Positions 13,585 through 61,813 of a stretch of 64,000 nt of DNA are shown here, piece after piece. The notes below the pieces were generated by a model. The model was not told the origin of the DNA and made no database searches. It was given only the letters and a program-made list of their open reading frames with translations. Each line of letters begins with the position of its first letter. The first letter of the stretch is position 1. The translations under genes and the position numbers were made by a program. Source of the DNA: a virus; the IMG/VR virus record IMGVR_UViG_3300045911_000062, positions 1 through 64,000 of that record. One strand, written 5' to 3'.

Positions 13585-14868
13585 TTAGTTAAGTAATATT
13601 TTACCACCATCGACACGTAATATGTAACCCCCATTATGCATCAGCAACGCGGGATTACTAGGTTCAGACGATGGTGTAGGTGTAGGTGTAGGCGTAGGTG
13701 TAGGTGTAGGCGTAGGTGGTTCTATGGTATTTACCGTTATATTTAACACTTCCCCTACATTCATATGTATATTATATGGTTTAGGAACTGAACATTCTTC
13801 AAAACCATCAAAACCAGCCCCAAATTTATACCCATATAATCTTATTTCACCATTCCCAGATAACGGAGCGGAGATACTTTCAGCAAATGTTAATATTGTT
13901 GTATTTGTTTCTGGATTGTATGAATGATTACTAATTTTATATTCAGTTAAATTAAACGTATCAGGATTATAGAACCATACTCGTCTTGGGGCTATTAAAC
14001 CAGTTCGCAGTTGAATTGAACCGTGTATATTTTCTGAAACATGATTAAATACATTATTATTTTTTATTTTTATAATAGTATCAGTACCATTATAAGTTAC
14101 TGTTTTTACTTGATATACACCGTTATTTTTATTTGGACTTTTAACTTCGATATAGCCAGATATTGAGGTGGTATCTACCTGTTCGCTTACAATGATTTCT
14201 GTTCTGTTCGATTCTGGTATGTATCTAACTAAAGTTACAGCATAAACGCCGTCATTATAACGGCTGCCAGACACCCTAAAATGCATCTTACTTTTTATTT
14301 CTGAAACTTTATTTCCAGAAATAAAAAAGCTATTGGGCGTATTATGAACTATATCAAAAGTGAAAAAGGGGACTACTAAAAATAATTTATGTATATTGAA
14401 CGTATTTAAATGGTTCCCTCGCAAAATTATTGTATCATGAGATGGAATATTATGAATTTGAATTCTTTTATCAAATGTAAAATTGTTTATTAAATCAGGA
14501 TCTCCAGATAATTCTACCGTATCTGATGTTTCATTTATTGAAATAATAGGAGCAGAAACTAAAAGATCAGAATTGTCAAATATTAATCCATATCCACCGA
14601 TACATTCAAAAAGATCGCAACACTCTACTGCATCAAAACCACATTCTTCGTCCCATATTAAACCAAATCCAACAGGTCCGCATAATGCTAAATTTTTCTT
14701 AATTATGTCGATATTGTGATTTTCTGTAATACCTACAGAAATGTATTCATTTATCCTATATTTTTCGATGACTTCCAACAGCTTAGTATGATACGGTTTT
14801 ACTTCTAAAAAATAGCGTATCAGTGCATCTATAGGTTTTGATATTCCGGGCCTTAGTTCACAAGACAT
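13585..14868 (-). CDS. Virion structural protein with Pro-Thr linker and C-terminal tip
   Basis: A 427-residue protein. The N-terminus (DALIRYFLEVKPYHTKLLEVIEKY) is an adaptor-like helix followed by ~330 residues of beta-rich, Ser/Thr/Ile-rich repeats with several related segments (SGYIEVKSPNKNNGVYQVKTVTY and similar). Near the C-terminus comes an uninterrupted Thr-Pro repeat linker (encoded at about 13671-13719), then a ~30-residue tip with two short repeated strands (GGYILRVDGGKILLN). This looks like a baseplate or fibre protein whose tip is displayed on a stiff linker. It heads the leftward structural operon and has an upstream CATAAATA box. Confidence 0.65.
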   Translation of the reverse strand: MSCELRPGISKPIDALIRYFLEVKPYHTKLLEVIEKYRINEYISVGITENHNIDIIKKNLALCGPVGFGLIWDEECGFDAVECCDLFECIGGYGLIFDNSDLLVSAPIISINETSDTVELSGDPDLINNFTFDKRIQIHNIPSHDTIILRGNHLNTFNIHKLFLVVPFFTFDIVHNTPNSFFISGNKVSEIKSKMHFRVSGSRYNDGVYAVTLVRYIPESNRTEIIVSEQVDTTSISGYIEVKSPNKNNGVYQVKTVTYNGTDTIIKIKNNNVFNHVSENIHGSIQLRTGLIAPRRVWFYNPDTFNLTEYKISNHSYNPETNTTILTFAESISAPLSGNGEIRLYGYKFGAGFDGFEECSVPKPYNIHMNVGEVLNITVNTIEPPTPTPTPTPTPTPTPSSEPSNPALLMHNGGYILRVDGGKILLN

Positions 14869-21340: not shown

Positions 21341-21982
21341 ATGATTAGAAAAACACTTCAAGACTTTTATGATAAGGTATCAGGCAGAACAGTTTATGTC
21401 ATTGCCGGTGGGTCAACAGTAAAAACACAAAATTTAAACCTTTTAAATGGAAAATTAGTAGTATGCCTTAACAATTCATATTCTATTTATCCCGATGCAT
21501 TGGCATTATATTGGGCAGATGAAACATGGGTGAATAACCATATAGAAGGTGTAAAAAATCATCCAGCTAAATTTAGATTTCATAGTAAATTCCATGTCTC
21601 TGATAAGTATTTAAATAGTGAAAAACATCTTGGAATTGGAAATTCAACTATATTAAGACGTACTGGTGATAAAGGAATAGATCCAGATTTAAATAATGTT
21701 AGGGGCAACAATAGTGGAGCACATATATTAAATTTATTGTATAATTGTAAAGTTAGAAGAATAATATTATTAGGATATGATATGAAAATTATTGATGGTA
21801 AATCACATTGGCACGGTGGACACAGCTTATCAATAAAACCAGAAGTATACTGCAATCTTTTTATACCTTCAATTCAATCTATGGCAGATTTTTTTAAGCG
21901 TGCAAATATAGAAGTTATAAACACGTCACCAAATACAGATTTAAAATGCTTTCCTAGAATGAAACTTGAGGATGTCGTATGA
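21341..21982 (+). CDS. DUF115/MptE-like Rossmann-fold protein
   Basis: A 213-residue protein with the pattern of the DUF115 (MptE-like) family: VYVIAGGSTV near the N-terminus, CLNNSY, an ALYWADE strand, then NNSGAHILNLLYNCKVRRIILLGYDM. Members sit in surface-polysaccharide and flagellin-glycosylation loci and are thought to bind nucleotide-linked substrates. It is a paralogue of the protein at 22545-23219. Its stop overlaps the next ATG (ATGA), so the cluster is translated as a unit. Confidence 0.7.
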   Translation: MIRKTLQDFYDKVSGRTVYVIAGGSTVKTQNLNLLNGKLVVCLNNSYSIYPDALALYWADETWVNNHIEGVKNHPAKFRFHSKFHVSDKYLNSEKHLGIGNSTILRRTGDKGIDPDLNNVRGNNSGAHILNLLYNCKVRRIILLGYDMKIIDGKSHWHGGHSLSIKPEVYCNLFIPSIQSMADFFKRANIEVINTSPNTDLKCFPRMKLEDVV

Positions 21983-22548
21983 CACAACCTATTATAGTTA
22001 CAGCTTTCAGTTCAAATGAATACTATATTAAATGCGCAGAAAAATTTAAAAAAATGTTTCATAGAAATTGTAACAATTTATTAATTATGGAACAATTTAA
22101 TGATTGTGGAGACTGGCATTCTAATACTAGAAAAAAACCATCAATAATACTAAAAAATCTATGCGAACAAAAACAAACAATTATGTGGATAGATGTTGAT
22201 GCAGAAATATACAATCCTATAGAACTAGATGTTCCAAATGATATTGATATGATGGCTGTTAGGCAAGAGTGGGGACCAAGAAGAACCTGGTGTGTAGGTA
22301 CTATTTTATTTAATTATACACAAAATTCTATAGATTTTTTAACGGAATGGTGTAATGTATGTAATTCAAATAAAGGAACAGATGAAGCTAATCTTGAAAT
22401 TGTTTGGCAAAAGAATTGGAAAAATAAATTAAAAACACAACTATTACCTAGAAAATTTTTTATGGTAAACAAGTTACACGAAAAACAAAAAGATACTGTA
22501 ATACTACACTATTCTTCTGGAAACGCTAGAAAAAAGGAAAAAATATGA
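21979..22548 (+). CDS. Nucleotide-diphospho-sugar transferase
   Basis: A 189-residue GT-A-like transferase. It carries the metal-binding DVDAEI (a DxD motif, residues ~74-79), a preceding IMWI strand, and the late WCVGTILFNYT...FLTEWC and HYSSG segments seen in short nucleotide-sugar transferases. It is flanked by the two DUF115-like genes with four-base overlaps on each side. The donor sugar and acceptor cannot be read from the sequence. Confidence 0.68.
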   Translation: MTQPIIVTAFSSNEYYIKCAEKFKKMFHRNCNNLLIMEQFNDCGDWHSNTRKKPSIILKNLCEQKQTIMWIDVDAEIYNPIELDVPNDIDMMAVRQEWGPRRTWCVGTILFNYTQNSIDFLTEWCNVCNSNKGTDEANLEIVWQKNWKNKLKTQLLPRKFFMVNKLHEKQKDTVILHYSSGNARKKEKI

Positions 22549-23219
22549 ACGGAGTGTCTTGGGGAGTTGTAAGTTGTCAACACGACAGTATAGTAATTGT
22601 TTGTAGTGGAAGAAGTTTAAAATCATTTGACATGAATTTATTATCTGGTATTGGACACATTATATGTGTCAATAATTCTTATATTGGTGTTCCCATTTAT
22701 GATGCATGGTTTACCCTCGATCCATGGGGATTGTCTGGTGGACAGTTACCAAAAAAAGGAAATCCAAAATTATACGCAGCAGTTCCACAAGACTTTGGGA
22801 CGCCACACGCAAAAATTCAAAGTCACAGGATAAATGCACCAAAAAATATAACGTATTTACATAGGTTAATATCCCATAATAATCCAACTGTATCAAGTGA
22901 AACTGCTTATAGATTAGGTTTGAGTGAAGACCCCGGTTGTATAAATACTGGCAACTCTGGTTTTGGTGCTCTAAATCTTGCATACCACATGAAACCAAAA
23001 AAAATTTTGATATTAGGCATGGATGGAGATATAGGATATTATTATTCCGGATCAGAAAAGAATAGATCATTGAAATTTTTACCACTAATGATGGAATCTA
23101 CGGTTGATCAGTTAAAAAAAGCAAATATAACAGTAATAAATGGCAGTTTAAACAGTAGTATAACTTGTTTTCAAAAATATACTCCAGAAGAATCAGTAAA
23201 AATATTCAAGGATATTTAA
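22545..23219 (+). CDS. DUF115/MptE-like Rossmann-fold protein (second copy)
   Basis: A 224-residue paralogue of the protein at 21341-21982: IVIVCSGRSL, CVNNSY, AWFTLDPW, NTGNSGFGALNLAYHMKPKK, ILILGMDGD align in order. It differs by a longer middle region, which may set substrate choice. It overlaps the preceding transferase by ATGA and is preceded by AAGGA. Likely role as for its paralogue, in sugar transfer onto a surface or virion glycan. Confidence 0.7.
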   Translation: MNGVSWGVVSCQHDSIVIVCSGRSLKSFDMNLLSGIGHIICVNNSYIGVPIYDAWFTLDPWGLSGGQLPKKGNPKLYAAVPQDFGTPHAKIQSHRINAPKNITYLHRLISHNNPTVSSETAYRLGLSEDPGCINTGNSGFGALNLAYHMKPKKILILGMDGDIGYYYSGSEKNRSLKFLPLMMESTVDQLKKANITVINGSLNSSITCFQKYTPEESVKIFKDI

Positions 23220-23222
23220 AAA

Positions 23223-24560
23223 ATGCTTGACACTATAATTAAATCTATAAATGACACTAAAGACATAAATGGCAATATAGTTTTTTTCAGAGTGTATAAA
23301 GGTGATATAATTATACGTTTAGCAAAATTGGATATTACAGAAAAGAATTTTTTGATCATACATAATTCTACTGGCTTAGAGCAACCTACCATTTTTGATT
23401 TTGAAAAAGATAATAAGACTTGCTTATACAACAAGGGAAGGTTTTCATTTTCTAGGAAAAATCTTATAAATCGTCTAAATTCTAACATAAAAAACTATAA
23501 AAATAAATTCACAATAAATGATTTTCGTGATATAAAAACTGCAATAAAAAATTTAAAAAATATATCGCCATCTATTTGTGTTATAGATCTAATCCAATAT
23601 GAGCCTACAAAAGAATGTTTAGAGTTTTGTTTTAAAATACTACCAATAAATGGTAATATTATTATAACAAATTACGTTGAAACGAATAATAATCTAAGTT
23701 CAAAAGCCGTTAATGAATTTCTTTATAAAAATAATGACAATATATGTAAAACAATCAATAGTATAGAAAAAACAATAACATTAACAAAAAAAGAAGAATC
23801 TACACAAGACATAATAGAAATATTTCAATACAAAACGGAATCATATAATAATGAATCAGACTTAATACAAACATTTCCATACAAAATGGAAACATATAAA
23901 AATGAACCAGACTTAATAATATCATGTGTGTTGCGTACAGGAGGACCAGTTTATAATTACAACTATGTTAATGCTCTAGCTAATTCTATTAAAAAAAATG
24001 TAAAAATACCACACGAATTTGTATGTCTTACCGACGATCATACCGGATTTAATTCTAATGTGGACTCAATTATAAAATTAAAACACGATTTTAAAAAATG
24101 GTGGTGTAAAATAGAATTATTTAGACCTGATATATTTAAAAACAAAAGAGTATTTTTCTTAGATTTGGACACAGTTATTTTAGAAAATATTGATAATATA
24201 GTTAGTAAGAAATTTAATTTTTGTGGACTAAGAGATTTTTATAAAAATGATACGCTTGGAAGCGGTTTAATGTCATGGACATCAGGCGGTTATCACCATA
24301 TTTATGAAAAATTTTTAAGAAATTCACAAGCAATTATGAATTACACGCCAGAAGGCGATCAACAATGGATCAATCAAAATGTTGATGGCATAACATATTT
24401 TCAAGATGTTTTCGGATCTGAAATTGTTTCTTATAAAAAACATTGTATTAAAAATAAAATATTTAATATGCCTAAAAATGCAAAAATAATATGCTTTCAC
24501 GGAGTACCAAAGCCACATGAAATTAACTATCCACAAATAAGGGATCATTGGCTGCCTTGA
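23223..24560 (+). CDS. Two-part protein with C-terminal glycosyltransferase domain
   Basis: A 445-residue protein. Residues ~235-445 form a GT-A-like transferase: CVLRTGGPVYNYNYVNALA, the metal-binding FLDLDTVI (DxD), GLRDFY, LGSGLMSW, EGDQQWIN and a late CFHGVPKPH. The N-terminal ~200 residues are Lys/Asn/Ile-rich and unrecognised. Between the parts lies a tandem repeat of about 17 residues (QYKTESYNNESDLIQTF then PYKMETYKNEPDLIISC), probably a hinge. It is the last gene of the sugar cluster; a fibre gene follows after 28 bases. Confidence 0.68.
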   Translation: MLDTIIKSINDTKDINGNIVFFRVYKGDIIIRLAKLDITEKNFLIIHNSTGLEQPTIFDFEKDNKTCLYNKGRFSFSRKNLINRLNSNIKNYKNKFTINDFRDIKTAIKNLKNISPSICVIDLIQYEPTKECLEFCFKILPINGNIIITNYVETNNNLSSKAVNEFLYKNNDNICKTINSIEKTITLTKKEESTQDIIEIFQYKTESYNNESDLIQTFPYKMETYKNEPDLIISCVLRTGGPVYNYNYVNALANSIKKNVKIPHEFVCLTDDHTGFNSNVDSIIKLKHDFKKWWCKIELFRPDIFKNKRVFFLDLDTVILENIDNIVSKKFNFCGLRDFYKNDTLGSGLMSWTSGGYHHIYEKFLRNSQAIMNYTPEGDQQWINQNVDGITYFQDVFGSEIVSYKKHCIKNKIFNMPKNAKIICFHGVPKPHEINYPQIRDHWLP

Positions 24561-24588: not shown

Positions 24589-25635
24589 ATGTCAACTATA
24601 AAATATAAATGTAATACATGTAAAAGAGAAGTTGAATTGTTAGAAAATCAAAACGGGTTAACCGTAATTGGTAGATGCGTGTTGACTAATGGTTGCTTTG
24701 GAAAACTGCAACCTATTGCGAGAAACCCATACAATATAAGAGAAACGTATGATTATTATGACAATGACCTTTCTGAATTATATGAATTCAATTCTAGAAA
24801 CAAATTTTTTAACCATCATCAGATTAATAAAAATACAATATGGAGAATTAAACACAATTTAAATAATCATCCATTTGTAGTAGTATTTGTTAATACTGGT
24901 AACGGAATAAAAAAACTAGATAAATCAAACTATTCTATTAATTATATAGATTCTAATAACTTAATTGTTAATTTAGATAATGCATCTGGCGTAGCTCATT
25001 GTATAGCAAGAACTTCACAACATGACATTATAAAATATTCAGAACCAACAGAACAAATGACCCAAGTTACAGTTGGTGGAACATTCACATTTGCTATTCC
25101 AAAATTACTTACAAAAATTGATACTCCCACACCAACACCAACTCCATCGTTGCCATTAGATTTACAATTTATTGGCGATATAGAATTGGAAATAGGGATA
25201 ACAAAGCCTAATGAAGAGGAAGTTATTTGTTTTGAAAAAATACCAACAACCCAGATAGCTTCTCCATGGGTTGGCATAAATGAAATACTCATACGAAACC
25301 GTAGAAATTATTACGTCAAAATGAAAAACATTTTACAATTTACTACTTTCGATAATGCAAATTTAACTTTTTCTGATATACCTGATGGAACAAAAATTCG
25401 ATTCATCAGAATCAATTATGGTACTGGAATACGTCAAAGCATACCGTCACGAGGAGCATTTGTTCTATTAAGTACCTATCCACACAAAATTCATGATAAA
25501 ACGTTAGACAAAATTCTTGATTTAGGTGAAATAGTAGATACACAATATTGGTATATGACATATAATGGGGGAGAAGTTTATATTAATACTAATGCTATCG
25601 AATCCACATATCCGCATATAAGGAAGGTTTCATGA
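24589..25635 (+). CDS. Virion structural protein with N-terminal zinc ribbon
   Basis: A 348-residue protein. The first ~40 residues form a zinc-ribbon-like unit (YKCNTCKREVEL...GRCVLTNGCFG, two Cys pairs). Residues ~75-145 carry the H-N-L beta module (TIWRIKHNLNNHPFVVVFV...YIDSNNLIVNLDNASGVAHCIAR) also found in four other proteins here. A short Thr-Pro linker (DTPTPTPTPS) then joins an unrecognised C-terminal domain. It heads the rightward fibre operon 24589-27741 and overlaps the next gene by ATGA. Probably a fibre or baseplate component. Confidence 0.65.
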   Translation: MSTIKYKCNTCKREVELLENQNGLTVIGRCVLTNGCFGKLQPIARNPYNIRETYDYYDNDLSELYEFNSRNKFFNHHQINKNTIWRIKHNLNNHPFVVVFVNTGNGIKKLDKSNYSINYIDSNNLIVNLDNASGVAHCIARTSQHDIIKYSEPTEQMTQVTVGGTFTFAIPKLLTKIDTPTPTPTPSLPLDLQFIGDIELEIGITKPNEEEVICFEKIPTTQIASPWVGINEILIRNRRNYYVKMKNILQFTTFDNANLTFSDIPDGTKIRFIRINYGTGIRQSIPSRGAFVLLSTYPHKIHDKTLDKILDLGEIVDTQYWYMTYNGGEVYINTNAIESTYPHIRKVS

Positions 25636-33031: not shown

Positions 33032-33916
33032 TTATTGAGAAAATTCTAAAGAGAAATCTTTCCAATAATCTCTAGCTCTAATTGGAATTTTTTGATCATT
33101 TATTTTTAAATAAAATTGTGGATCTTCATCGTCTTCATAAAAACAATCCGGCAATTGTTTATTCCACGGCATATTATTTTCTAATGTTTCTAGACAAAGA
33201 GTTGGTATATAATTATCTATAGTTATATTTTGCGTTTTAATCATTTTTATTGGTTCAATGTCATTTACACCTACACTAGCAAAGTAGTCTCTAAACTTTA
33301 TTCCATCTCCCCATAACTTATCAGAAAAATGTAACCATAAACATGGAACTTGATATGCATGTGATGTTATTATTCCATGTAAACTTGAAGATATTATTTT
33401 TTCACAACTAAGAATATCATCTATAAATCTTTCCATTTTCTTAGCTGTTGGTGTTGTAGTATTTAAAATTATAGTATCGCGAAAATGCTCTTCATGTTGT
33501 TTAACAAAACTTACCATATCATGATATTCTATTTGATGTGGTATTATGCCAAGCTTATATTTCTTTTTTATATTTTTATTATTATACATAGATGGTAATA
33601 ATAATGCTGGATCTCCATATACCACTTCTCCAACATCAATTCCAGATTCTTCCAAAACTTTTTTCGTCAACGGACCCCTAACAACATTATAAACTAATCC
33701 GTGTCTAAGTTTTTGTGTTCTAGATATAACACCATTTCCAAAAACATGAGTATTTTTCGACAAATGATGAGTTAATGTACTACCTACTAATGTTATTTTG
33801 TTTTCTATCTCATGATGGCAATAATGAAATGGTATGTTTTTTTTAAATAAAATGTACTGATTTAGGGCATCACCGAAATTATTGGAAGGTATGAAATTAA
33901 TTTTAAGTCTTTTCAT
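33032..33916 (-). CDS. Polysaccharide pyruvyltransferase family protein (second copy)
   Basis: A 294-residue protein with the family landmarks NNFGDALNQYI, VYGDPALLLPS and SSSLHGIITSHAYQ, in the same order as in the 258-residue protein at 9906-10682. The HFSDKLWGDGIKFRDYF segment near residue 195 is also shared with that copy (FSDKVLGNGFKFHDYY). It is the last gene of the third sugar cluster and overlaps the HtrL-like gene by 14 bases. Likely pyruvyl or related transfer to a surface or virion glycan. Confidence 0.82.
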   Translation of the reverse strand: MKRLKINFIPSNNFGDALNQYILFKKNIPFHYCHHEIENKITLVGSTLTHHLSKNTHVFGNGVISRTQKLRHGLVYNVVRGPLTKKVLEESGIDVGEVVYGDPALLLPSMYNNKNIKKKYKLGIIPHQIEYHDMVSFVKQHEEHFRDTIILNTTTPTAKKMERFIDDILSCEKIISSSLHGIITSHAYQVPCLWLHFSDKLWGDGIKFRDYFASVGVNDIEPIKMIKTQNITIDNYIPTLCLETLENNMPWNKQLPDCFYEDDEDPQFYLKINDQKIPIRARDYWKDFSLEFSQ

Positions 33917-34799
33917 TTTTTATAAACTTTTCAAAATAATCACTAAATGCTACTTTATTCGGGTTATGTAAGTGACCCCAATCTCTATGATAGAACGAAT
34001 CAAACATTATAGTTTTAAATAAATTTTTATTTTCGTGTGATATGGTTGAATATATTGATTCTTCAGAAAATAATTCTTTATCATTTATTATATCTACAAT
34101 TTTTGATACACATAAACAGCAAAAAATATCCATAAATTCTTTTCTTCCGCCGAAGAACCCGCCTATCATAGAATCTGTACGCATATTCGTGTCTATATGA
34201 TAGAACCGTTTTGGCAGTGGTCTATTGTTGGGTATTGTATGACATATGGATATGATTTTATTTTCTATGTCATTTAAAATATTTTGTATTAAATTTTTAT
34301 TAAAAATTCCAACAGACTTATTAGGATTATTTTTAACATCATGAAAATATTCATGTGGAAATAATAGACTACTAGACAAACCAGCATCAATCCAAAACAA
34401 ATAATCAACAGTAATATTAACTGAATTCATTACGTGACGTATCATTTCAGTTTTACCCCACATGATATGACAATTTCTATCTATCCAAAATCTACTTTTT
34501 AAATATGGATCAGATTTTTCAATTTTAATTTGAAAAATACTGTTAGAAAACCAAAAATCAGTTAAATCTTTTTTTATTACAAATATATTATTATACTCTT
34601 TGAATTCATTACATATCTGATGAAATGTATCACTAGAAGTAAAACAATATATTGGATAACCTATATTTGATATGCTTTTTAAAGATTCTCTATAATATTT
34701 TTCTCTATCTGGTCTTCCGCCAAATGGCGTTCCATGATAACCATCATAAATACAAGTTACAAATATGACATTATTATAGTTCTTTTTATTTTTTTTCAC
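33903..34799 (-). CDS. HtrL/YibB-like glycosyltransferase
   Basis: A protein of about 298 residues. The pattern FVTCIYDGYH at the start, WFSNSIFQIKIEKS, LFWIDAGLSSS (acidic sugar-nucleotide/metal site) and MIGGFFGGRKEF matches the HtrL/YibB group of putative glycosyltransferases; the same pattern occurs in the middle of the fusion protein at 35391-37730. The frame opens at TTG 34823, but the GTG at 34799, which reads GTGA and overlaps the upstream stop by 14 bases, is a more economical start. Confidence 0.7.
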   Translation of the reverse strand: MKKNKKNYNNVIFVTCIYDGYHGTPFGGRPDREKYYRESLKSISNIGYPIYCFTSSDTFHQICNEFKEYNNIFVIKKDLTDFWFSNSIFQIKIEKSDPYLKSRFWIDRNCHIMWGKTEMIRHVMNSVNITVDYLFWIDAGLSSSLLFPHEYFHDVKNNPNKSVGIFNKNLIQNILNDIENKIISICHTIPNNRPLPKRFYHIDTNMRTDSMIGGFFGGRKEFMDIFCCLCVSKIVDIINDKELFSEESIYSTISHENKNLFKTIMFDSFYHRDWGHLHNPNKVAFSDYFEKFIKNEKT

Positions 34800-35349
34800 A
34801 GCATAACCATGCACATTTTTCAAAGTCTATATTTGAGTATTTTTTTAAATTTTTTAATGATTCTAATACATCGGAATCTATTATTTCACACCAATCCCAA
34901 TATGTATCTTTAATATTGTTTAAAAAATGTTCCTCATTTATAGCATAATCGTGTGCCATAATAAAATCGCCAGAGTTTATTATCCTAGAAAAATAATTAA
35001 ATTCCTTTTTTTTATCGCCACCGTCACATAAAATCAAAGTTTTTCCACTTGATATTTTATCATTGATAATATCTAATGCATCTTTAGAGAATACGTCTAA
35101 TATTATTCTTCCTTTTAAATTTTCGTCTCCTACCCTATCAACAATATCAAAAGATAAAAAATTATAATTATATTCTATAGATTTTTCATATAAAAACAAA
35201 CAAAATCCACCATATGCAGTTCCAATTTCTATAACATTTTTAAAATTTTGTTCTTTTAAAAAAACATCAAAAGATGCAAATGTTATATTATTTTGCATAG
35301 CTTTAAAGTTTTTATATACAAAAAATCCAGTTTTATTAAAGTAATCCAT
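34786..35349 (-). CDS. Class I SAM-dependent methyltransferase (CmcI/rhamnosyl-O-methyltransferase-like)
   Basis: A 187-residue protein with a Rossmann methyltransferase core: VIEIGTAYGGFCLFL is motif I, LSFDIVD motif II, and LILCDGGDKKKEFNYF...DFIMAHDYA resembles the CmcI/cephalosporin hydroxylase group, which includes sugar O-methyltransferases. It lies inside the third sugar cluster between the HtrL-like gene and the three-domain fusion, so a glycan is the likely substrate. An exact late promoter box precedes it. Confidence 0.75.
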   Translation of the reverse strand: MDYFNKTGFFVYKNFKAMQNNITFASFDVFLKEQNFKNVIEIGTAYGGFCLFLYEKSIEYNYNFLSFDIVDRVGDENLKGRIILDVFSKDALDIINDKISSGKTLILCDGGDKKKEFNYFSRIINSGDFIMAHDYAINEEHFLNNIKDTYWDWCEIIDSDVLESLKNLKKYSNIDFEKCAWLCCEKK

Positions 35350-35390: not shown

Positions 35391-37730
35391 TTAATTTTCC
35401 CTTCGTTCGTGAGGTTTATAATGTTTAATTCTATTATGTAATATTGGAGATGCTAATAAAACTGCTGGCCTCAAATTACCTTCTTTAGTCATCTGGTACA
35501 TATAAGACATCCATGTTTGTTCATATGGATGAACCCATTTTGTATCAATAAACATTTTCTTATTACCTTTTTTAGAAACTATCATTGGCCAGTTTGCATA
35601 ATAAATTTCACCGTCAATATATGTTAATCCATCCAAATTTCTTATATTTTTGAAAATCGTCAACGGTGAATTGGGATCTAGACCTTGAATTGGTAATTTA
35701 TCATAATCTGGCCAATCTCTACTCCTTATATGTTGCGGAACGTTATACCATGAACATTGTTTATCATTGTCCAAGAACACTTCTGTAAAAGTTAATTTTA
35801 GAAAATCAAATTCATCTTTTAGCATTATTCTATGCACTAAATTATAAAGATTTGGAATATATTTTCTAAATCCATTCCTACAAAATTGTGATGAAAACTC
35901 TGGAGGGTTAATCGTCATATCATCTTCAAAGAAAAACATAAAATCTGCTTCAGAATCATGAAAATGTTCAGCGGCTCTTTGTCTTCCACCACATATACCA
36001 GTATTTCCGTTCATATCTATGTATTCAAATTTATACTCATTAGCAATCTTTTTATTTTGTTTTTTTGCTTTTACGTCTGTTGAATTGTCTATAAGAACTA
36101 AATGTGGCCTTTTTAACCATTCTGGTGTTTTTTCCATAGATTTAATAGTATGCTGTAATTGTTCTGGAAAATTGAATGTTAATATATACAGATTTGTCTT
36201 GTACTTTTCTACATCTTTATCGGTATATATTTTTATATTTTTAATTTTCTTTTTTTCTGTTTCAACAATTTTAACATTACCGTCGATAATAGCCTGTGTA
36301 AATTTAACAATTAAACCATTCCCATCCAATTCAAATCTTCTATAAATGTCAGGCTGATTATATGCCATGATCGTAAATATACTTTCCTCAGTCCCCATAT
36401 AACCATCATTTAATGTTTTATTTAAAATAGAATAATATGTTGCATTCGCATCATTTATTTGTTTTTTATGTCCACCAAATAGCCCACCTCTACAAACATA
36501 TTCTACTTTTTTTCCAGCGTAAATATTAATTTTATTAAATTCAAATCCATGAATTTCGGTATTAGCTTCATATGGATAACTAAGAAACAAAAATGGATTT
36601 GCATACTCTGGTAATTTGTCGAGTACATTATTATCTACTAAATGAGAATATGAAACAGTATTTGTAATACCAGCGTCTAACCAGAAAAAATATTCAGTAT
36701 CAAATGGATTCCAAATAGTCGCATCATTTAGCATAAACATTTTTGATTGTACTATTGGGTTGTACCACTCTAAACTGGCTTGTGGCGATTCAGATAACCA
36801 TCCTGCTAAATTTCTCCATTTAGGATTATTGCGTATTTTTTGTGTAACATCCCAAAAAGGTGAATATAATTTTTTTATATCTTCTAATTCATATATTTTT
36901 ACATAAGTGTTGCGTCTGTCTCTTTTTTCCCAAACTAAATATTCCAAATCTTTTGGAATATAAATAAAAAGATTTTGTGGAATATCTAAAAAATTTTTAA
37001 AGTTTTCTATATAATGTTCAAATGGTCTGCCGACTCTGTTAATGTTCCACAATCCTGTAACTATAGTCATGTTTTTATTAACATTAATGCTATTTTTATA
37101 TTTCATATTAACAAAATCCTCAAATTGTTCAACTCGACCAATTTTTAAATTATTTTTTCGAACTATTAATAAATTATATGTATAAAAATATTCATGATTA
37201 TCAATAATATTAAAAATTTCATGTCGATAATCTACTAAAACATTACTAGAATCTGCATTGCCACCTATATCTTCAATTATATAGTATCCATCATTTTTTA
37301 CTTTGTTAAACAAATTTATAAATGTTTTATACTGACCTTCTGAAGTATGTAAGCCATCATCTATTATAATATCAAATGTTAGTCCATTTAAATTATCTTC
37401 ACAGCTTTGTTTATCCAAAGAACTAAACAAAAATGTTTTTATTCTATCTTCAGAAATCATACAATCTTCTGCTATGTCAACGCCATATATATTTGCATTT
37501 TTAAAGTATTCTTTCCAGGCTCGTAAACAAGCTGCTGGCTTATAGTGTGGGTAAAAATTAGTCACTCCTACAAATGTAGATTCAATATTTGGATCTAAAG
37601 TACCTAAGCCAACCTCCAATATGTCTATACTATTATCTCTAATTTTTTCAAACAATGCAGAGTATTTTTTAGTATATCCAGAAAGAAATTTATCACTACC
37701 ATTTTTAATTATTATATCATCTAAGTTCAT
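35391..37730 (-). CDS. Three-domain fusion: methyltransferase, HtrL-like transferase, GT2
   Basis: A protein of about 779 residues. Residues ~1-200: class I methyltransferase (DILEVGLGT, IYGVDIAEDC, FDIIIDDGLHTSEGQ, YYIIEDIGG). Residues ~220-490: HtrL/YibB-like transferase (MTIVTGLWNI, YFFWLDAGITN, YVCRGGLFGGHK). Residues ~505-779: GT-A family 2-like transferase (NLYILTFNFPEQL, VLIDNSTD, GICGGRQRAAEHF, FFFEDDMTI with the metal-binding acidic residues). The frame opens at TTG 37736; the ATG two codons later is used here. It probably installs and caps part of one glycan. I know of no standard protein with this exact order, but I could not search. Confidence 0.77.
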   Translation of the reverse strand: MNLDDIIIKNGSDKFLSGYTKKYSALFEKIRDNSIDILEVGLGTLDPNIESTFVGVTNFYPHYKPAACLRAWKEYFKNANIYGVDIAEDCMISEDRIKTFLFSSLDKQSCEDNLNGLTFDIIIDDGLHTSEGQYKTFINLFNKVKNDGYYIIEDIGGNADSSNVLVDYRHEIFNIIDNHEYFYTYNLLIVRKNNLKIGRVEQFEDFVNMKYKNSINVNKNMTIVTGLWNINRVGRPFEHYIENFKNFLDIPQNLFIYIPKDLEYLVWEKRDRRNTYVKIYELEDIKKLYSPFWDVTQKIRNNPKWRNLAGWLSESPQASLEWYNPIVQSKMFMLNDATIWNPFDTEYFFWLDAGITNTVSYSHLVDNNVLDKLPEYANPFLFLSYPYEANTEIHGFEFNKINIYAGKKVEYVCRGGLFGGHKKQINDANATYYSILNKTLNDGYMGTEESIFTIMAYNQPDIYRRFELDGNGLIVKFTQAIIDGNVKIVETEKKKIKNIKIYTDKDVEKYKTNLYILTFNFPEQLQHTIKSMEKTPEWLKRPHLVLIDNSTDVKAKKQNKKIANEYKFEYIDMNGNTGICGGRQRAAEHFHDSEADFMFFFEDDMTINPPEFSSQFCRNGFRKYIPNLYNLVHRIMLKDEFDFLKLTFTEVFLDNDKQCSWYNVPQHIRSRDWPDYDKLPIQGLDPNSPLTIFKNIRNLDGLTYIDGEIYYANWPMIVSKKGNKKMFIDTKWVHPYEQTWMSYMYQMTKEGNLRPAVLLASPILHNRIKHYKPHERREN

Positions 37731-37775
37731 GGCCAATACTTTAAAAAAATAATAATATTAGTGCATTAGTAAATT

Positions 37776-40466
37776 TCACAAACCTATCTCCACTCTTTCG
37801 GCCCATCCTCTTTCTGGTGAATGTCCCCAAAAAACTAATCTATTTGGTTTTTCATTAATAATAAACATTTCTTCATAGTGAATAGTACCATCTCCATTCA
37901 AAAATCTTTTTAGATTTTGTCCATCAATGTATTTTGTATGAATTGGTTTCCCTTCTTTGTCATCAAAAGCTACTAATATAAAATTATAATCGTTTGCTGG
38001 TAATTGTTTTCTATCTATATTAACTAGATGGTAAAATGATTTGTGGAATGATTCTTCCCATTCTCGTTCAGATTTATATGTGTATGGATTTGGCGGAAAA
38101 TTATTTTCCATTGTCCATTTCTGGAAAGCACGTTTTTTGAAATGTATTCCAGCATATTTCTCATAATCACGTAAAGATCTTACTTTTCCTAATGTATATG
38201 GTCCTAGATCGTGACCATTATTTTCTGTTTGTAGTAATTGCCTAATACGAGATCTGGCTATATCTTGTTGCTTCCACCATCTGTTATCTCCTCGTTTATG
38301 ATGATCGTCCCAAACTAAAATTCCAGACCGCTCCTCACGCATTGTTGCATGCCATATAACTACCCTGTGAGGATGAAATAAATCATATCCATGAGTATAG
38401 CTTCTGACTGTTAAATTTATCTCTTCTCCACTAAAAAATATATTAGGATCATGACGAACATCTCTAGCCCATTTATTAGGTCCAAAAGCAAAATGACCGC
38501 TTAAGAATCTTGCTGGATATGGCTTAGTAAGACTCTTCCAATTTTTAACAGCAGTCGGCCTAATAAAAATAGTTCCGAATGGATAAAAACATGCTGCTTC
38601 TGATAACCACGGCTCTTGTACTCTATCTGCCGGATCATTTTTTGGATTATAATATGGCAAATAACCACATATTAAAGGATTATATCCTTCATTCTTTAAT
38701 TCGTAGTACCAAGACAAAAGTGTAATATCCCAATCTTCTTTAAATCTATGGTGAGAATCTAATTGTAAAACAAATTCTTCATCTTCAAGTAAAGTATCAT
38801 TTATTAAAGCTCTTGCATATCCCAATCCTTTAGCTTCTAAGTAATTAATATCTATTATTTTAAATCTGGAATCAGTTCTAAATTCATCTAAATTATCAAA
38901 CCCATCATCTGGATTGAATTGCCTACATATTCCAAAAATTATTCTATCTGGATATTTTGCATTCTTTAGAGCATCCTTTATAGTAGGAACTAACTCTGGC
39001 TCTCTATATGCTGGTAGATGAACCAATATTCTATCAGATTTTATATGTTCATCTATTGATTTTATAATTTGTATTTTATTCTCATCTTGTTTATACTTTA
39101 CATCAATATTAAAATTTATAGTAGGCACTTTTTCTTCAATTTTGTTTTTTTCGTATATGTTTCCTTCTATAATAGATTGCCAACCATGCTCTTTTGAATG
39201 AGGCCATACGATCCACTTATAAGGTTTTTTATCATAATAAAAAGATCTCCAAATTTTACAATAACCATCTGGATCATTTTTCATTCTTTTTATTTCTTCG
39301 GGGTCTATATCTTGACGATGAATCTCTTTGCCATCTTCATCCTTAAATGCTACAACTAAACAGGTATAATCATCATATGGCAACTGATTAAATTGAATAT
39401 CTATGCAATGTTTAAAAAAGTTTAAAAATGAATTATTATAATCTTCTTCATTATCAAACTGTGGATTCGGAGCATAATTATTTTCTAAAGTGTATCTTTG
39501 AACTTTTTTATCACTAAACCTTATTCCCGAATATTTTTCATAATCTTTTAAAGTCCTTTCTGGTCCAAAACCATACTTACCAAACTCTTCAGGGTTATAA
39601 ATTTCACCGTCCATACTAAACAATTTTCTACAACGCAAATGTGCATTAGAATTTAGTTTATGCCAATTTGAATAATCATCCCAATGTTTCTTCAACCCCC
39701 TTCTTGTATAGAAATGCCAAGCGACCACTTTATGAAGATGATATAAATCATACCCCCATGTAAAAGCACGTACTGCAATAGAATGCTCTTCTCCATGGAA
39801 ATATAATTCTGGATCGTGTTGAACCTCTACAGCAAATTCACCCTGAGTAAATGCAAAATGTGCAGAATAAAATCTTGCTGCAACTGGTTCGGTTCTAGAC
39901 TCATAATCATCTATCGTTGCTGGTAAAAAATGCACTATACCTTCTGGACTAAATCTATCAAAATTCATTTTCCATGGTGCTTTGAGCCTGCTATCAGGAT
40001 CATTATCAGGATCATATGATGGTAAATAACAAGTTATTAATGGTTTTTTTGATTTTTTCTTCAATGATTCATATTCATTTATTAAAATACTATCCCATTT
40101 TTCTACAAATCTATGATGAGAATCTAATTGAAGTGTATATTTTTCCCCATTATATTCCTGTTGAATCCTATTTCTCGCCCAGCATGCGCCCTTAGATTCA
40201 GTATATGGGACGTCTAATAAAAGTATAGACGCCCCATCTTTACTTAGTAAGTATTTGTCGAAATCTTTATCGATTTCAGAAAACACCTGCTCTATAATAA
40301 AGTTATTATCTAAAAAATTTTCTACTGATTCATCGTCTGAATGTTGCCAATTTACACAAATCTTTAAATTTTGTGGGTATTCAGCATTTTTTATAATATC
40401 TATTAATGTAGGTATTAATTCGTTATCTCTATAAGATGCAATCTGTACAAAAATTGTATTTTCCAT
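37776..40466 (-). CDS. Duplicated GT60-like (Skp1-GlcNAc-transferase-like) glycosyltransferase
   Basis: An 896-residue protein made of two similar halves (~1-470 and ~480-896). Each starts with the GlcNAc (PF11397) family pattern, VQIASYRDNELIPTL in the first and VHLPAYREPELVPTI in the second. Each continues through AKG/SKG-x-x-x-AR, LQLDSHHRF with the metal-binding D-x-H (near residues 112 and 585), then FHGEEHSIAVRAFTWGYDLY and FSGEEINLTVRSYTHGYDLF. Known GT60 enzymes add GlcNAc to hydroxyproline (Skp1) or to Ser/Thr of proteins. Each half also ends in a conserved ~110-residue tail (LPYDDYTCLVVAF / LPANDYNFILVAF). A protein acceptor is therefore plausible. Confidence 0.8.
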   Translation of the reverse strand: MENTIFVQIASYRDNELIPTLIDIIKNAEYPQNLKICVNWQHSDDESVENFLDNNFIIEQVFSEIDKDFDKYLLSKDGASILLLDVPYTESKGACWARNRIQQEYNGEKYTLQLDSHHRFVEKWDSILINEYESLKKKSKKPLITCYLPSYDPDNDPDSRLKAPWKMNFDRFSPEGIVHFLPATIDDYESRTEPVAARFYSAHFAFTQGEFAVEVQHDPELYFHGEEHSIAVRAFTWGYDLYHLHKVVAWHFYTRRGLKKHWDDYSNWHKLNSNAHLRCRKLFSMDGEIYNPEEFGKYGFGPERTLKDYEKYSGIRFSDKKVQRYTLENNYAPNPQFDNEEDYNNSFLNFFKHCIDIQFNQLPYDDYTCLVVAFKDEDGKEIHRQDIDPEEIKRMKNDPDGYCKIWRSFYYDKKPYKWIVWPHSKEHGWQSIIEGNIYEKNKIEEKVPTINFNIDVKYKQDENKIQIIKSIDEHIKSDRILVHLPAYREPELVPTIKDALKNAKYPDRIIFGICRQFNPDDGFDNLDEFRTDSRFKIIDINYLEAKGLGYARALINDTLLEDEEFVLQLDSHHRFKEDWDITLLSWYYELKNEGYNPLICGYLPYYNPKNDPADRVQEPWLSEAACFYPFGTIFIRPTAVKNWKSLTKPYPARFLSGHFAFGPNKWARDVRHDPNIFFSGEEINLTVRSYTHGYDLFHPHRVVIWHATMREERSGILVWDDHHKRGDNRWWKQQDIARSRIRQLLQTENNGHDLGPYTLGKVRSLRDYEKYAGIHFKKRAFQKWTMENNFPPNPYTYKSEREWEESFHKSFYHLVNIDRKQLPANDYNFILVAFDDKEGKPIHTKYIDGQNLKRFLNGDGTIHYEEMFIINEKPNRLVFWGHSPERGWAERVEIGL

Positions 40467-48322: not shown

Positions 48323-48949
48323 TTATTCGAACCATTTTGAATAGTCGCCTGGAAATTTATTTTTATCATATACATATGGTTTAGTTGCTGCTATATAAAA
48401 TCTAACCTGATGTAAATCTCCATATAAAATATCACTAGTACAGTTTATGAAATGTTCTTCCCCAGGAAAAACAACCAAAGTACCGCGTTTGGGATTGATA
48501 GAAAAATTATGATTTAAAAATTGTAATTTACCGCCCATTACTTCATAATATGGATCTAAGGGTTTTTTATCTCTATAATCCTTCAAAAATAAAACTGCGC
48601 AAAAATCCTTTGAATTAATTCTGTACCAACTTTTTTTTCCGTTTGTAGCAACAAATACGCTATTTTCACAACGTTGTTTATTATTTTTACAGCCCTGTGG
48701 GTAATATTCTATTTCAAATGGATGCATACCTTTATACTCAAAATCATAATATTTTTCTAATTCTGGTATAAGAATGTCATTTATAGATTCTGAAAGTCTC
48801 AATTCTGCTAACCTATTAAATCGTACACTCATTATAGGGTTATTGTTTTCATCTCTGTCTGGTACTTCTATAATACATGAATCTACTATTTCTTCACACA
48901 ATAACGGTGAAACAAAATCTTCAAATAATAAAATTGGTGACTTAAACAT
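48323..48949 (-). CDS. 2OG-Fe(II) oxygenase-like (P4H-type) beta-helix protein with altered iron site
   Basis: A protein of about 208 residues with the order of a prolyl-4-hydroxylase-type fold: EYYPQG strand, DFCAVLFLKDY, GGKLQF, GTLVVFPGEEHF (distal His) and QVRFYIAAT (2OG-binding Arg). Where HxD-N-S is expected, the sequence reads RCENS, so two iron ligands seem replaced and activity is uncertain. The ATG at 48961 would leave almost no leader after the late box, so the ATG at 48949, with GAGG before it, is preferred. A virion protein or a modified hydroxylase are both possible. Confidence 0.62.
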   Translation of the reverse strand: MFKSPILLFEDFVSPLLCEEIVDSCIIEVPDRDENNNPIMSVRFNRLAELRLSESINDILIPELEKYYDFEYKGMHPFEIEYYPQGCKNNKQRCENSVFVATNGKKSWYRINSKDFCAVLFLKDYRDKKPLDPYYEVMGGKLQFLNHNFSINPKRGTLVVFPGEEHFINCTSDILYGDLHQVRFYIAATKPYVYDKNKFPGDYSKWFE

Positions 48950-48974
48950 AAAAAACCTCATATTTTGTACAGGA

Positions 48975-55932: not shown

Positions 55933-55949
55933 AGTAAGAATATACAACA

Positions 55950-55982
55950 AAAAAGGCAAGGACACAAGTTCCTTGCCTTTTT
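55950..55982 (-). terminator. Intrinsic terminator after the tail sheath gene
   Basis: A stem of 13 pairs, AAGGCAAGGA with its complement extended by A/T pairs, around a 7-base loop, ending in a T-run on the sheath strand. It lies 21 bases past the sheath stop codon and separates the endonuclease gene from the sheath transcript. Confidence 0.85.
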
Positions 55983-59374: not shown

Positions 59375-59553
59375 TCATGGTGTAATTGATGGTGTAATAG
59401 ATGGTGTAATTGATGGTGTAATAGATGGTGTAATAGATGGTGTAATAGATGGTGTAATAGATGGTGTAATAGATGGTGTAATAGATGGTGTAATAGATGG
59501 TGTAATAGATGGTGTAATAGATGGTGTAATAGATGGTGTAATAGATGGAGTAT
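59371..59553 (-). repeat. 12-bp tandem array encoding PSIT (about 15 units)
   Basis: Coding array of the 12-base unit TACACCATCTAT (or with TCA for Ser) giving Pro-Ser-Ile-Thr repeats at the C-terminus of the 155-residue fibre protein. Units are nearly identical at DNA level; the last unit carries TGA in place of TCA. Confidence 0.9.
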
Positions 59554-59842
59554 TACTGACTATTACAAATTGTTTTGAATTTTCAATAAAATATATGTTA
59601 AGAAGTCCAATAACATTATTTGAAAAATTAAAATTTATATATGTATCATTATATGTTATATTGTTAGGATATATTTGTTGGCCATTTATATCTAAAATAT
59701 TAAAATAAAAATTTGTTCCGTAATTTCTTACTGATACAGAATTACCATTAAACTTTATAGATCGCCATTTATCATTATCTGGTGCCTGACCAGAATGTAA
59801 TATTATATTTCCAGTTAGTATATCTAAAAAACAATTTGACAT
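59375..59842 (-). CDS. Short fibre protein: H-N-L-like module plus PSIT repeat tail
   Basis: A 155-residue protein. Residues ~15-90 form a beta module (DKWRSIKFNGNSVSVRNYG...NNITYNDTYINFNFSNNVIGLLNIYFI) related to those of the proteins at 24589, 26652 and 27451. From ~97 to the end it is an uninterrupted run of PSIT repeats, and the stop falls inside the last repeat. A fibre that ends in its own linker is odd; the frame continues beyond the TGA for 85 codons. It follows the large repeat fibre gene and has a CATAAATA late box. Confidence 0.7.
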   Translation of the reverse strand: MSNCFLDILTGNIILHSGQAPDNDKWRSIKFNGNSVSVRNYGTNFYFNILDINGQQIYPNNITYNDTYINFNFSNNVIGLLNIYFIENSKQFVIVSNTPSITPSITPSITPSITPSITPSITPSITPSITPSITPSITPSITPSITPSITPSITP

Positions 59843-59927: not shown

Positions 59928-61784
59928 TCAAAATGATGATGGTGTTGGCGTTACATCTGGTGTAATTGTTGGGGTTGGTGTCGGTGTCAATGTAATATTT
60001 GGATCAATATCAATAGAGTTCAATTCACCAAATGCAATTGTTTGAATATCTTCATTAGATGGATCTATAAAATCGACTAAAGAAAAAGAAGAAATAGTAT
60101 TACCATCAAATTCAAATGCATAACCGTTTGAATTTAATGGGAAATAAATTCTATGACGACCTGAACGCCCGGAAACATGCATAGAAGATGCATATGATCC
60201 CATATCATATAGTGGATTAAAAAGTTCATTTCCTAAATGATCAGTCATAATAAATCCACTTGAATAAATTTGAAGGTTATAATCTGATGTGTCAACTAAA
60301 TATGTCACATAGCCTGTAATGGTATCCATTTTAACATCTAATAAATTTGAAATTGTATAAGAGTTATTTAATGATATGGTTCCAAAACTATCTACAGAAA
60401 AATAATTTCCAATATGATCTACACCTGTGTATACATATGCAAAAACAGTGTTATTATAATATTGAATATATTCTATTTCATCATCAAAAGTATATGTATC
60501 AACTAAAGTAAATGTATTTGTTATATTATCAAACGTGTATGTATGAAAACTATAATTTTCACATATTACATAATAATCTCCAACTTTACCTATATTTCTA
60601 CAATGCATATTTGTATTAGAAATTAAATTTAAATGATTATTTGTTATAGTAAATATTAACAAACCTGGAGGTGTTAAATTCTCTGGCGGTATTCCTTCCG
60701 TAAAACCCTGTCCCGCTGGCACGAATAGATATTCAGTTCCATCAATATAAGTAAATAAAACATCCCTAGTAAAAAGAAAACAAGAACCATTCCATGGATA
60801 TGGTTCTACTATTGCATCATAATATGAAGTTATAAACAATGAAGAACCATATCTAACCAACATTAAAATTGAATCATACCTGACCAAAACTGCATGATTA
60901 TTATGAATGGCGGATAGTATTGTATAAGTTTCAGTGTTAAAAACTAAATCTGGAAAATCATAATTATATGCAATTATATTTAAATCTGACATATCATACG
61001 ACACATATGAAGATGCATCGACGTTTGATTGTAACATAAATTCTTCTTCAACAACAAGTATTGGCGTATTTGATGGTGTAATAGATGGTGTAATAGATGG
61101 TGTAATAGATGGTGTAATAGATGGTGTAATAGATGGTGTAATAGATGGTGTAATTGATGGTGTAATTGATGGTGTAATTGATGGTGTAATTGATGGTGTA
61201 ATTGATGGTGTAATTGATGGTGTAATTGATGGTGTAATTGATGGTGTAATTGATGGTGTAATTGATGGTGTAATTGATGGTGTAATAGATGGTGTAATAG
61301 ATGGTGTAATTGATGGTGTAATTGATGGTGTAATTGATGGTGTAATTGATGGTGTAATAGATGGTGCTACATATTCTATATTAATGTAATCTTTTATGTC
61401 TACAAAAATTAAATTGGCATCCATAACAAAACCAACTTTTTGCATTATCCCTTTATTTGGTACAACAGTAGTTAATTCTCCGCTTTTACCTAAAAAAAGT
61501 GGAGTCATTGGGGGTGCAGAAAATATATTTTCACCAAAATCTATAACGCCAAATCTAATATATTTAATAAGTTCTTGTGGAGAAGAATTTTGTATTGCTA
61601 CTCCATGACATTCTAAAAAATTTGCTGTTGATGCCAATTTTACTAAATTATCACCATACGATACATTTACACAATAAAATTTTGGTATATATTCTATTGC
61701 AGACCCTTCGAGATGTTGACATTCAAATTTAGTGCTACGTAGATAATTATCTATAATTGATATTTTTTTATCTGGGTCAATCAT
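59928..61784 (-). CDS. Large fibre protein: head module, long PSIT linker, propeller-like domain
   Basis: A protein of about 618 residues. Residues ~1-140 are a beta-rich module whose end (KVGFVMDANLIFVDIKDYI) matches the proteins at 791 and 25632. Residues ~142-242 are about 25 PSIT repeats. Residues ~250-595 contain many short strands (VLVRYDSILMLVRYG, YYVICENYSFHTY, NTVFAYVYTG) of propeller type. The protein ends in a second Thr-Pro linker (TPTPTPTITPDVTPTPSSF) with no domain after it. The TTG at 61796 is an alternative start; the ATG at 61784 fits the late box and GGA better. Probably a receptor-binding fibre. Confidence 0.7.
   Translation of the reverse strand: MIDPDKKISIIDNYLRSTKFECQHLEGSAIEYIPKFYCVNVSYGDNLVKLASTANFLECHGVAIQNSSPQELIKYIRFGVIDFGENIFSAPPMTPLFLGKSGELTTVVPNKGIMQKVGFVMDANLIFVDIKDYINIEYVAPSITPSITPSITPSITPSITPSITPSITPSITPSITPSITPSITPSITPSITPSITPSITPSITPSITPSITPSITPSITPSITPSITPSITPSITPSNTPILVVEEEFMLQSNVDASSYVSYDMSDLNIIAYNYDFPDLVFNTETYTILSAIHNNHAVLVRYDSILMLVRYGSSLFITSYYDAIVEPYPWNGSCFLFTRDVLFTYIDGTEYLFVPAGQGFTEGIPPENLTPPGLLIFTITNNHLNLISNTNMHCRNIGKVGDYYVICENYSFHTYTFDNITNTFTLVDTYTFDDEIEYIQYYNNTVFAYVYTGVDHIGNYFSVDSFGTISLNNSYTISNLLDVKMDTITGYVTYLVDTSDYNLQIYSSGFIMTDHLGNELFNPLYDMGSYASSMHVSGRSGRHRIYFPLNSNGYAFEFDGNTISSFSLVDFIDPSNEDIQTIAFGELNSIDIDPNITLTPTPTPTITPDVTPTPSSF
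61072..61369 (-). repeat. 12-bp tandem array encoding PSIT (about 25 units)
   Basis: Same unit as the array at 59371-59553, inside the large fibre gene. The Ser codon alternates between TCT and TCA in blocks of several units rather than randomly, which shows block duplications. Confidence 0.9.
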
Positions 61785-61805
61785 TTGAAAATCCAAAGAT
61801 GTTAG

Positions 61806-61813
61806 TATTTATG
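61806..61813 (-). promoter_or_regulatory. Late promoter box CATAAATA
   Basis: Minus-strand box overlapping the stop region of the upstream structural gene; 22 bases upstream of the preferred ATG at 61784 of the large fibre gene. Confidence 0.55.

What the first reader, a model, noticed from the sequence alone, without database searches (positions are those of the whole stretch)
37776..40466. Duplicated GT60-like protein glycosyltransferase in a phage with Pro/Thr/Ser linkers
Known: GT60 (PF11397) enzymes transfer GlcNAc to hydroxyproline (Dictyostelium Skp1) or Ser/Thr of proteins. Seen: a protein with two full GT60-like halves; fibre proteins with long Thr-Pro and PSIT linkers (13585, 24589, 59375, 59928); and a P4H-type protein at 48323. 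Inference: the phage may glycosylate its own fibre linkers, making them stiff or hidden. This would be an unusual virion protein glycosylation system. The oxygenase lacks a normal HxD site, so the acceptor would more likely be Thr/Ser.
Basis: partly seen in the sequence, partly recalled or inferred. Interest (0 to 1): 0.75.

Follow-up and report, generated by a model that had tools for sequence, protein, structure and literature searches.

The report
Phage mucin-type protein glycosylation module
This large phage carries two fused sugar-transferase enzymes that are folded like the animal enzymes that start mucin glycosylation, and across large phages these enzymes tend to travel with virion-type proteins full of mucin-like Thr/Pro repeats, so the phage probably coats its own tail proteins with sugar.

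Summary
Confirmed: the ORF at 37776-40466(-) is two complete PF11397 (GT60) domains, each with the DxH motif. It is a fusion of two diverged paralogues that are separate neighbouring genes in other phages, not a recent duplication. Both predicted structures match mucin-type polypeptide GalNAc-transferases best.

The acceptor idea was tested by co-occurrence. Among 16 cultured large phages related by tail sheath, the 3 with GT60 carry 19-29 Thr-Pro repeat sites each; the 13 without carry none. Among 30 viral records picked by unrelated genes, 3 of 3 with GT60 have the repeats against 1 of 27 without. Three large GT60 phages have 14-16 proteins with mucin-like stretches (1,300-2,300 residues); three without GT60 have 22-140 residues.

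GT60 sits with a conserved HtrL/YibB transferase-like protein and a variable cassette of glycan-modifying genes. Bacterial GT60s lie in T6SS or tail-like operons, or near Thr-Pro proteins. For phage XacN1, which has this gene, the published study reports at least two virion glycoproteins.

Best reading: a phage mucin-type O-glycosylation module acting on virion linkers, mainly at Thr. This rests on association, not biochemistry. Hydroxyproline is unlikely: the oxygenase-like protein lacks HxD throughout the group.

The parts
37776..40466 (-). Fused double GT60 protein; N half (aa 1-450) and C half (aa 463-896), each a complete GT-A domain with DxH
   Evidence: Pfam E=1.6e-117; halves 37% identical with LDSHHRF in both; AlphaFold pLDDT 86 and 81.5; best PDB folds ppGalNAcT
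35391..37736 (-). Methyltransferase-like + HtrL/YibB + GT2-like protein; its last 560 aa are conserved beside GT60 in other phages
   Evidence: PF09612 E=4.5e-12, PF00535 E=1.5e-4 just under cut-off; homologues in XacN1 (ORF330), RAS14, G043; PF09612 in 6/6 GT60+ and 0/23 GT60- records
34786..35349 (-). Methyltransferase-like protein of the cassette
   Evidence: weak PF04989/PF13489 below cut-off
33903..34823 (-). Glycosyltransferase-like protein by eye; no Pfam match
   Evidence: no hit; assignment from reading the sequence only
33032..33916 (-). Polysaccharide pyruvyl transferase
   Evidence: PF04230 E=7.5e-13
6263..10682 (-). Second sugar cluster: GT-like, DegT-type aminotransferase, GT-D-like, pyruvyl transferase
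   Evidence: PF01041 E=3.8e-19, PF22882 E=6.2e-11, PF04230 E=1.1e-14; PF13692 below cut-off
21341..24560 (+). Third cluster of weakly matching sugar-transferase-like genes, next to fibre genes
   Evidence: PF03407 above cut-off for 21979-22548; others below cut-off or no hit
13585..14868 (-). Candidate acceptor: 427-aa protein with PPTPTPTPTPTPTPTPSSEPS; homologue of XacN1 ORF174, which has long mucin-like stretches
24589..25635 (+). Candidate acceptor: 348-aa protein with (TP)4; homologue of the linker proteins XacN1 ORF370 and ORF372
59375..59842 (-). Candidate acceptor with (PSIT)14
   Evidence: 12-bp repeat
59928..61796 (-). Candidate acceptor, 622 aa, (PSIT)24 plus a Thr-Pro tail; beside the sheath genes, as XacN1 linker genes ORF369-372 are
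61809..64000 (-). 3' part of an open frame running to about 71111 in the record (about 3,100 aa); homologue of the 3,222-aa XacN1 protein that has a Pro/Thr/Ser linker
   Evidence: phrog_10938 virion structural protein E=1.4e-11
48323..48961 (-). Oxygenase-like protein without HxD, conserved in the group; probably not part of the mechanism

Best explanation
The protein is a fused pair of GT60 transferases that start mucin-type O-glycosylation. Each domain uses a metal (DxH motif) and a nucleotide sugar, probably UDP-GlcNAc or UDP-GalNAc, to place the first sugar mainly on Thr, and on Ser, within Pro/Thr/Ser-rich linkers of the phage's own tail and fibre proteins. The neighbouring HtrL/YibB protein and a lineage-specific set of glycosyl-, methyl-, pyruvyl- or carbamoyltransferases then extend and cap the glycan. 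The outcome would be glycosylated, extended linkers on the virion, with a glycan that changes quickly between phages. Shown here: domain identity, intact motifs, predicted fold, paralogue fusion, conserved gene partners, and co-occurrence with mucin-like linkers. Inferred: donor sugar, Thr acceptor, virion location in this phage, order of steps, and benefit.
For: Both domains match PF11397 with invariant DSHHRF and GEE...R..T.GYD...WH blocks. The N-half fold is closest to polypeptide GalNAc-transferases: all 29 top entries, Z 19.2-22.6, next best 17.3; Foldseek leads with the same enzymes for the C half. Linker co-occurrence: cultured relatives 3/3 against 0/13; records picked by NrdA or sheath 3/3 against 1/27; 27/40 GT60-picked records. 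Reverse test: 9/44 records picked by (TP)5 have GT60, 0/34 picked by (A/D/E-P)5 over cut-off, Fisher p=0.004. Linker residues: XacN1 2328, RAS14 1909, G043 1339, against 22, 23 and 140 in three GT60- large phages. In those linkers Thr is 29-35% against 7% in all ORFs, Ser 9-16% against 6-7%. Bacteria: 9/45 non-T6SS GT60 loci have Thr-Pro repeats within about 13 kb, 1.3 expected; a Klebsiella plasmid GT60 lies 187 bp after a gene with DPTPTPSPTPTPTPTPEP. HtrL/YibB partner 6/6 against 0/23. XacN1 study: at least two virion glycoproteins (PMC5852040).
Against: No enzyme assay or glycopeptide exists, and the XacN1 glycoproteins were not tied to linker proteins in the text I could read. The association is with the whole module (GT60 plus HtrL/YibB), not GT60 alone. 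Related phages are not independent, and the three cultured GT60 phages are one clade. 13 of 40 GT60 records lack the TPTPTP pattern: of four examined, G001 and G019 have other mucin-like stretches, G024 a 467-residue Thr/Ser-rich region, and G011 almost nothing. GT60-lacking G039 has a long TP linker. 35 of 44 (TP)5 records lack GT60, so such linkers also exist without it. HtrL/YibB and pyruvyl transferases also fit surface polysaccharide pathways.
Confidence: 0.7

Rival explanations
1. The cassette modifies host surface polysaccharide or LPS, to exclude rival phages or change receptors, and the linkers are unrelated.
For: HtrL/YibB, pyruvyl transferase, GT25- and GT10-like genes occur in surface glycan pathways; a jumbo-phage survey assigns phage GT clusters to O-antigen or capsule changes (PMC7824862).
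Against: It does not explain why GT60 tracks Thr-Pro linkers in phages and bacteria, nor the polypeptide GalNAc-transferase fold, nor the virion glycoproteins reported for XacN1.
Confidence: 0.14
2. The module glycosylates hypermodified phage DNA bases, as T4 glucosyltransferases do.
For: Phage GTs often act on DNA; a thymidylate synthase homologue is present.
Against: The only Pfam match of the protein is PF11397 and its fold matches protein glycosyltransferases. Bacterial homologues sit in T6SS and tail-like operons. No base-hydroxylating gene was recognised in the window, but the record is a fragment.
Confidence: 0.04
3. The enzyme glycosylates another protein of the virion or host; Thr-Pro linkers co-occur only because both belong to the same kinds of large, fibre-rich phages.
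For: Linkers also occur without GT60 (35/44); G011 has GT60 and hardly any linker. In T6SS loci the gene next to GT60 is a fimbrial adhesin without an obvious linker.
Against: 13 large phages related by tail sheath lack both GT60 and the repeats; Ala/Asp/Glu-Pro linkers do not track GT60.
Confidence: 0.12

Closest known systems
XacN1 ORF334, with homologues in Stenotrophomonas phages RAS14 and CM1
   Same: Same PF11397 family, same gene neighbourhood, HtrL/YibB partner, linker proteins beside the tail sheath; at least two virion glycoproteins reported for XacN1 (PMC5852040)
   Different: One GT60 domain instead of a fused pair; carbamoyltransferase neighbour in XacN1 instead of the methyltransferase-fused HtrL protein
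GT60 polypeptide alpha-GlcNAc transferases (Skp1 Gnt1; Trypanosoma cruzi enzyme)
   Same: Same enzyme family; protein hydroxyl acceptors (PMC6939170)
   Different: Eukaryotic; the Skp1 enzyme needs hydroxyproline, for which no intact hydroxylase was found here
Mucin-type polypeptide GalNAc-transferases (GT27)
   Same: Best fold match, DxH motif; known acceptors are rich in Thr, Ser and Pro (general knowledge)
   Different: No detectable sequence match to solved members; the lectin domain of GT27 was not shown to be present
Virion glycosylation of mycobacteriophages (Freeman et al. 2023, as cited in PMC12619734)
   Same: Glycans on phage virion proteins
   Different: As cited there, glycans at C-termini of capsid and tail tube subunits; no link to GT60 or mucin-like linkers is described

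Membership tests
GT60 / PF11397 | Profile match above curated cut-off in each half | tested here: met
   393 bits for the whole protein against cut-off 21, 3 stretches; two stretches of phrog_24687
GT60 / PF11397 | DxH metal-binding motif and conserved catalytic blocks in both halves | tested here: met
   LDSHHRF at 114 and 569; invariant columns
GT60 / PF11397 | Transfers alpha-GlcNAc to a protein hydroxyl | not testable with these tools
   needs an enzyme assay
GT27 polypeptide GalNAc-transferase | Catalytic fold | tested here: met
   Z up to 22.6, rmsd 3.3-3.8 over about 280 residues; Foldseek for the C half
GT27 polypeptide GalNAc-transferase | Sequence relationship and C-terminal ricin-type lectin domain | tested here: inconclusive
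   no PDB sequence match; most matches end near residue 350 of the model
Skp1 hydroxyproline pathway | Active prolyl 4-hydroxylase with HxD...H | tested here: not met
   48323-48961 and homologues lack HxD; no Pfam hit. The record is a fragment
Mucin-like acceptor domains | Long Pro/Thr/Ser-rich stretches in virion-type proteins | tested here: met
   virion type inferred from synteny with tail sheath genes and phrog_10938

The most novel reading that the evidence does not exclude
A widespread, self-contained bacterial and phage mucin-type O-glycosylation system: GT60 initiates, HtrL/YibB and variable enzymes extend, and mucin-like Thr/Pro linkers on contractile tails (phage, T6SS, injection particles) are the dedicated acceptors, giving virions a rapidly diversifying sugar coat.
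Probability: 0.45. Interest if true: 0.88.

Novelty: new variant of a known kind. Interest (0 to 1): 0.76.

Why it matters
Protein glycosylation of phage virions is rarely documented. A recognisable initiating enzyme paired with recognisable acceptor domains would allow glycosylated virions to be predicted from sequence. It would suggest mucin-like proteins in phages, give a likely role to the HtrL/YibB family of unknown function, and link phage tails with T6SS and injection particles through a shared modification. Cultured phages XacN1 and RAS14 make it directly testable.

Tried and rejected
Recent duplication of the GT60 gene: rejected by the tree. Hydroxyproline as acceptor: the oxygenase-like protein lacks HxD in this phage and three relatives. 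Solved relatives by sequence: none; weak hits to a response regulator and fatty-acid-binding proteins are noise. Single-protein scans with DNA polymerase, NrdA and tail sheath returned too few viral contigs for a control set; an NrdA alignment worked. Literature searches for PF11397 in phages or for mucin-like phage tails gave nothing on point. PF00535 does not track GT60. PHROGs gave no function for most linker proteins.

Full report
What is there. The ORF at 37776-40466 on the minus strand encodes 896 residues and matches Pfam PF11397 at E=1.6e-117. The only PHROG match, phrog_24687 'glycosyltransferase', is hit twice. The halves share 37% identity over 439 columns and each carries LDSHHRF. 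The DSHHRF, GEE and WH blocks are invariant across 23 aligned sequences.

Fusion, not a fresh duplication. A scan of viral contigs found 156 relatives and kept 80. In about a dozen of these loci two GT60 ORFs of about 420 aa lie side by side as separate genes; most others have one. In a maximum-likelihood tree the C half of the window protein falls inside the group of second genes (100/100 support, up to 76% identity), while the N half lies outside it and is most like single-copy genes (its exact place is unsure). The window protein is therefore a fusion of two diverged paralogues, which suggests two different acceptors or successive steps; that last point is inference.

Fold. AlphaFold models of the halves (pLDDT 86.0 and 81.5) match polypeptide GalNAc-transferases best. 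For the N half all 29 leading VIA-align entries are such enzymes (Z 19.2-22.6, rmsd 3.3-3.8 over about 280 residues), with the next entry at 17.3. Foldseek gives the same picture for both halves. No solved structure matches by sequence. Those enzymes act on Thr and Ser in Pro-rich, mucin-like sequence (general knowledge).

Gene partners. In 83 loci the most frequent neighbour family, in 62 loci and nearly always on the same strand, is a protein whose representative matches HtrL/YibB (PF09612). In the window it is 35391-37736, and its last 560 residues are conserved beside GT60 in XacN1, RAS14 and G043. Among 29 records, PF09612 occurs in all 6 with GT60 and none of 23 without. Further downstream genes vary: FkbM methyltransferases, GT10-like, GT25-like, a PLOD-type GT and carbamoyltransferase. 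The window itself has pyruvyl transferases, a DegT-type aminotransferase and a GT-D-like protein. This looks like initiation, extension and capping; the order is inferred.

The linkers. The Thr-Pro and PSIT stretches are real; the PSIT arrays are 12-bp repeats with 97% matches. Window proteins 13585 and 24589 are homologues of XacN1 linker proteins ORF174, ORF370 and ORF372, whose mucin-like stretches are much longer. In XacN1, ORF369-372 lie beside tail sheath and sheath stabiliser; the window's PSIT genes hold the matching place. The frame at 61809 continues to about 71111 in the 73,946-base record and its window part matches a virion structural protein family.

Association tests. (a) The codon pattern for TPTPTP occurs in 27 of 40 GT60 records; the pattern read backwards in 2. 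(b) Of 30 records picked by an NrdA or sheath relative, the 3 with GT60 all have it and 1 of 27 others does (Fisher p=0.001). (c) Of 16 cultured phages related by tail sheath, XacN1, RAS14 and CM1 have GT60 and 19-29 sites each; PA5oct, RaK2, 121Q, CBB, Atu_ph07, SCTP-2, XbC2, XaC1, Munch, Phosso, GAP32, Hallingskeid and Vibrio 2.275.O have neither (p=0.002 if independent, which they are not). (d) Picking records by (TP)5 gives GT60 in 9 of 44; by (A/D/E-P)5, 0 of 34 over cut-off (p=0.004). (e) Linker residues per genome: 2328, 1909 and 1339 in three large GT60 phages against 22, 23 and 140 in three without. Thr is enriched about five-fold in these stretches in XacN1, Ser about 1.5-fold. Some metagenomic linker proteins are mostly linker, for example 1414 of 1788 residues.

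Exceptions. Four GT60 records without the TPTPTP pattern were read: G001 and G019 have other mucin-like stretches, G024 a 467-residue Thr/Ser-rich region, G011 almost nothing. Many (TP)5 records lack GT60.

Bacteria. GT60 seems rare: 158 confirmed loci from a scan of 84,980 species genomes with two peptide patterns, so this is a lower bound. About two dozen of the 80 kept lie in T6SS loci after the ImpA-domain gene, often with a fimbrial adhesin gene between. An Azospirillum copy heads an operon with sheath, tail, VgrG and PAAR genes, and a relative there has a Pro/Thr/Ser stretch in the sheath-matching ORF. Of 45 non-T6SS loci, 9 have TPTPTP sites within about 13 kb against 1.3 expected from the same genomes. 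On a Klebsiella plasmid the preceding gene encodes DPTPTPSPTPTPTPTPEPTP.

Experiment in the literature. The XacN1 study detected at least two glycoproteins by proteomic analysis and proposed that the phage-encoded glycosyltransferases ORF328 and ORF334 make them (PMC5852040). ORF334 is the homologue here. The idea of phage-made virion glycoproteins is therefore not new; the mucin-like acceptor, the module and its spread are, as far as the held literature shows.

Verdict. It remains an association: donor, acceptor and benefit are untested.

Noticed in passing
L535, L536, L590-L619 (bacterial loci): GT60 genes lie inside T6SS loci directly after the ImpA-domain gene, often with a fimbrial adhesin gene between; what they modify is unknown. 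Two such loci (L602, L617) also have long Thr-Pro repeats, in L602 in the VgrG-matching ORF.
   Followed up: partly
L539, L541: Azospirillum GT60 next to a contractile-tail or injection-particle operon (DUF4255, sheath, tail, VgrG, PAAR); in L541 the sheath-matching ORF has TPPPTPTPSPSPTPTTTP.
   Followed up: partly
L585, L591: Micromonospora: short GT60-like ORFs (205-227 aa) next to RHS-repeat proteins of about 1,970 aa.
   Followed up: no
window 48323-48961: 2OG-oxygenase-like protein conserved in XacN1, RAS14 and G043 but without HxD in any; perhaps a structural or dead-enzyme role near the DNA polymerase gene.
   Followed up: partly
window 54376-55965 and 30127-31719: Homing-endonuclease-type ORF next to the tail sheath gene (54376) and a similar-looking ORF at 30127 with 69-bp tandem repeats.
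   Followed up: no
window 59375-59842: 155-aa ORF that stops right after (PSIT)14; slippage may have cut the protein short, or it may be a natural short form.
   Followed up: no
window 6263-10682 and 21341-24560: Two more sugar-gene clusters flank fibre genes, apart from the GT60 cluster.
   Followed up: partly
L629 (G005), L624 (G023): Giant mucin-like phage proteins: 1414 of 1788 residues in Pro/Thr/Ser-rich stretches, and a 3753-aa protein with 689 such residues.
   Followed up: partly
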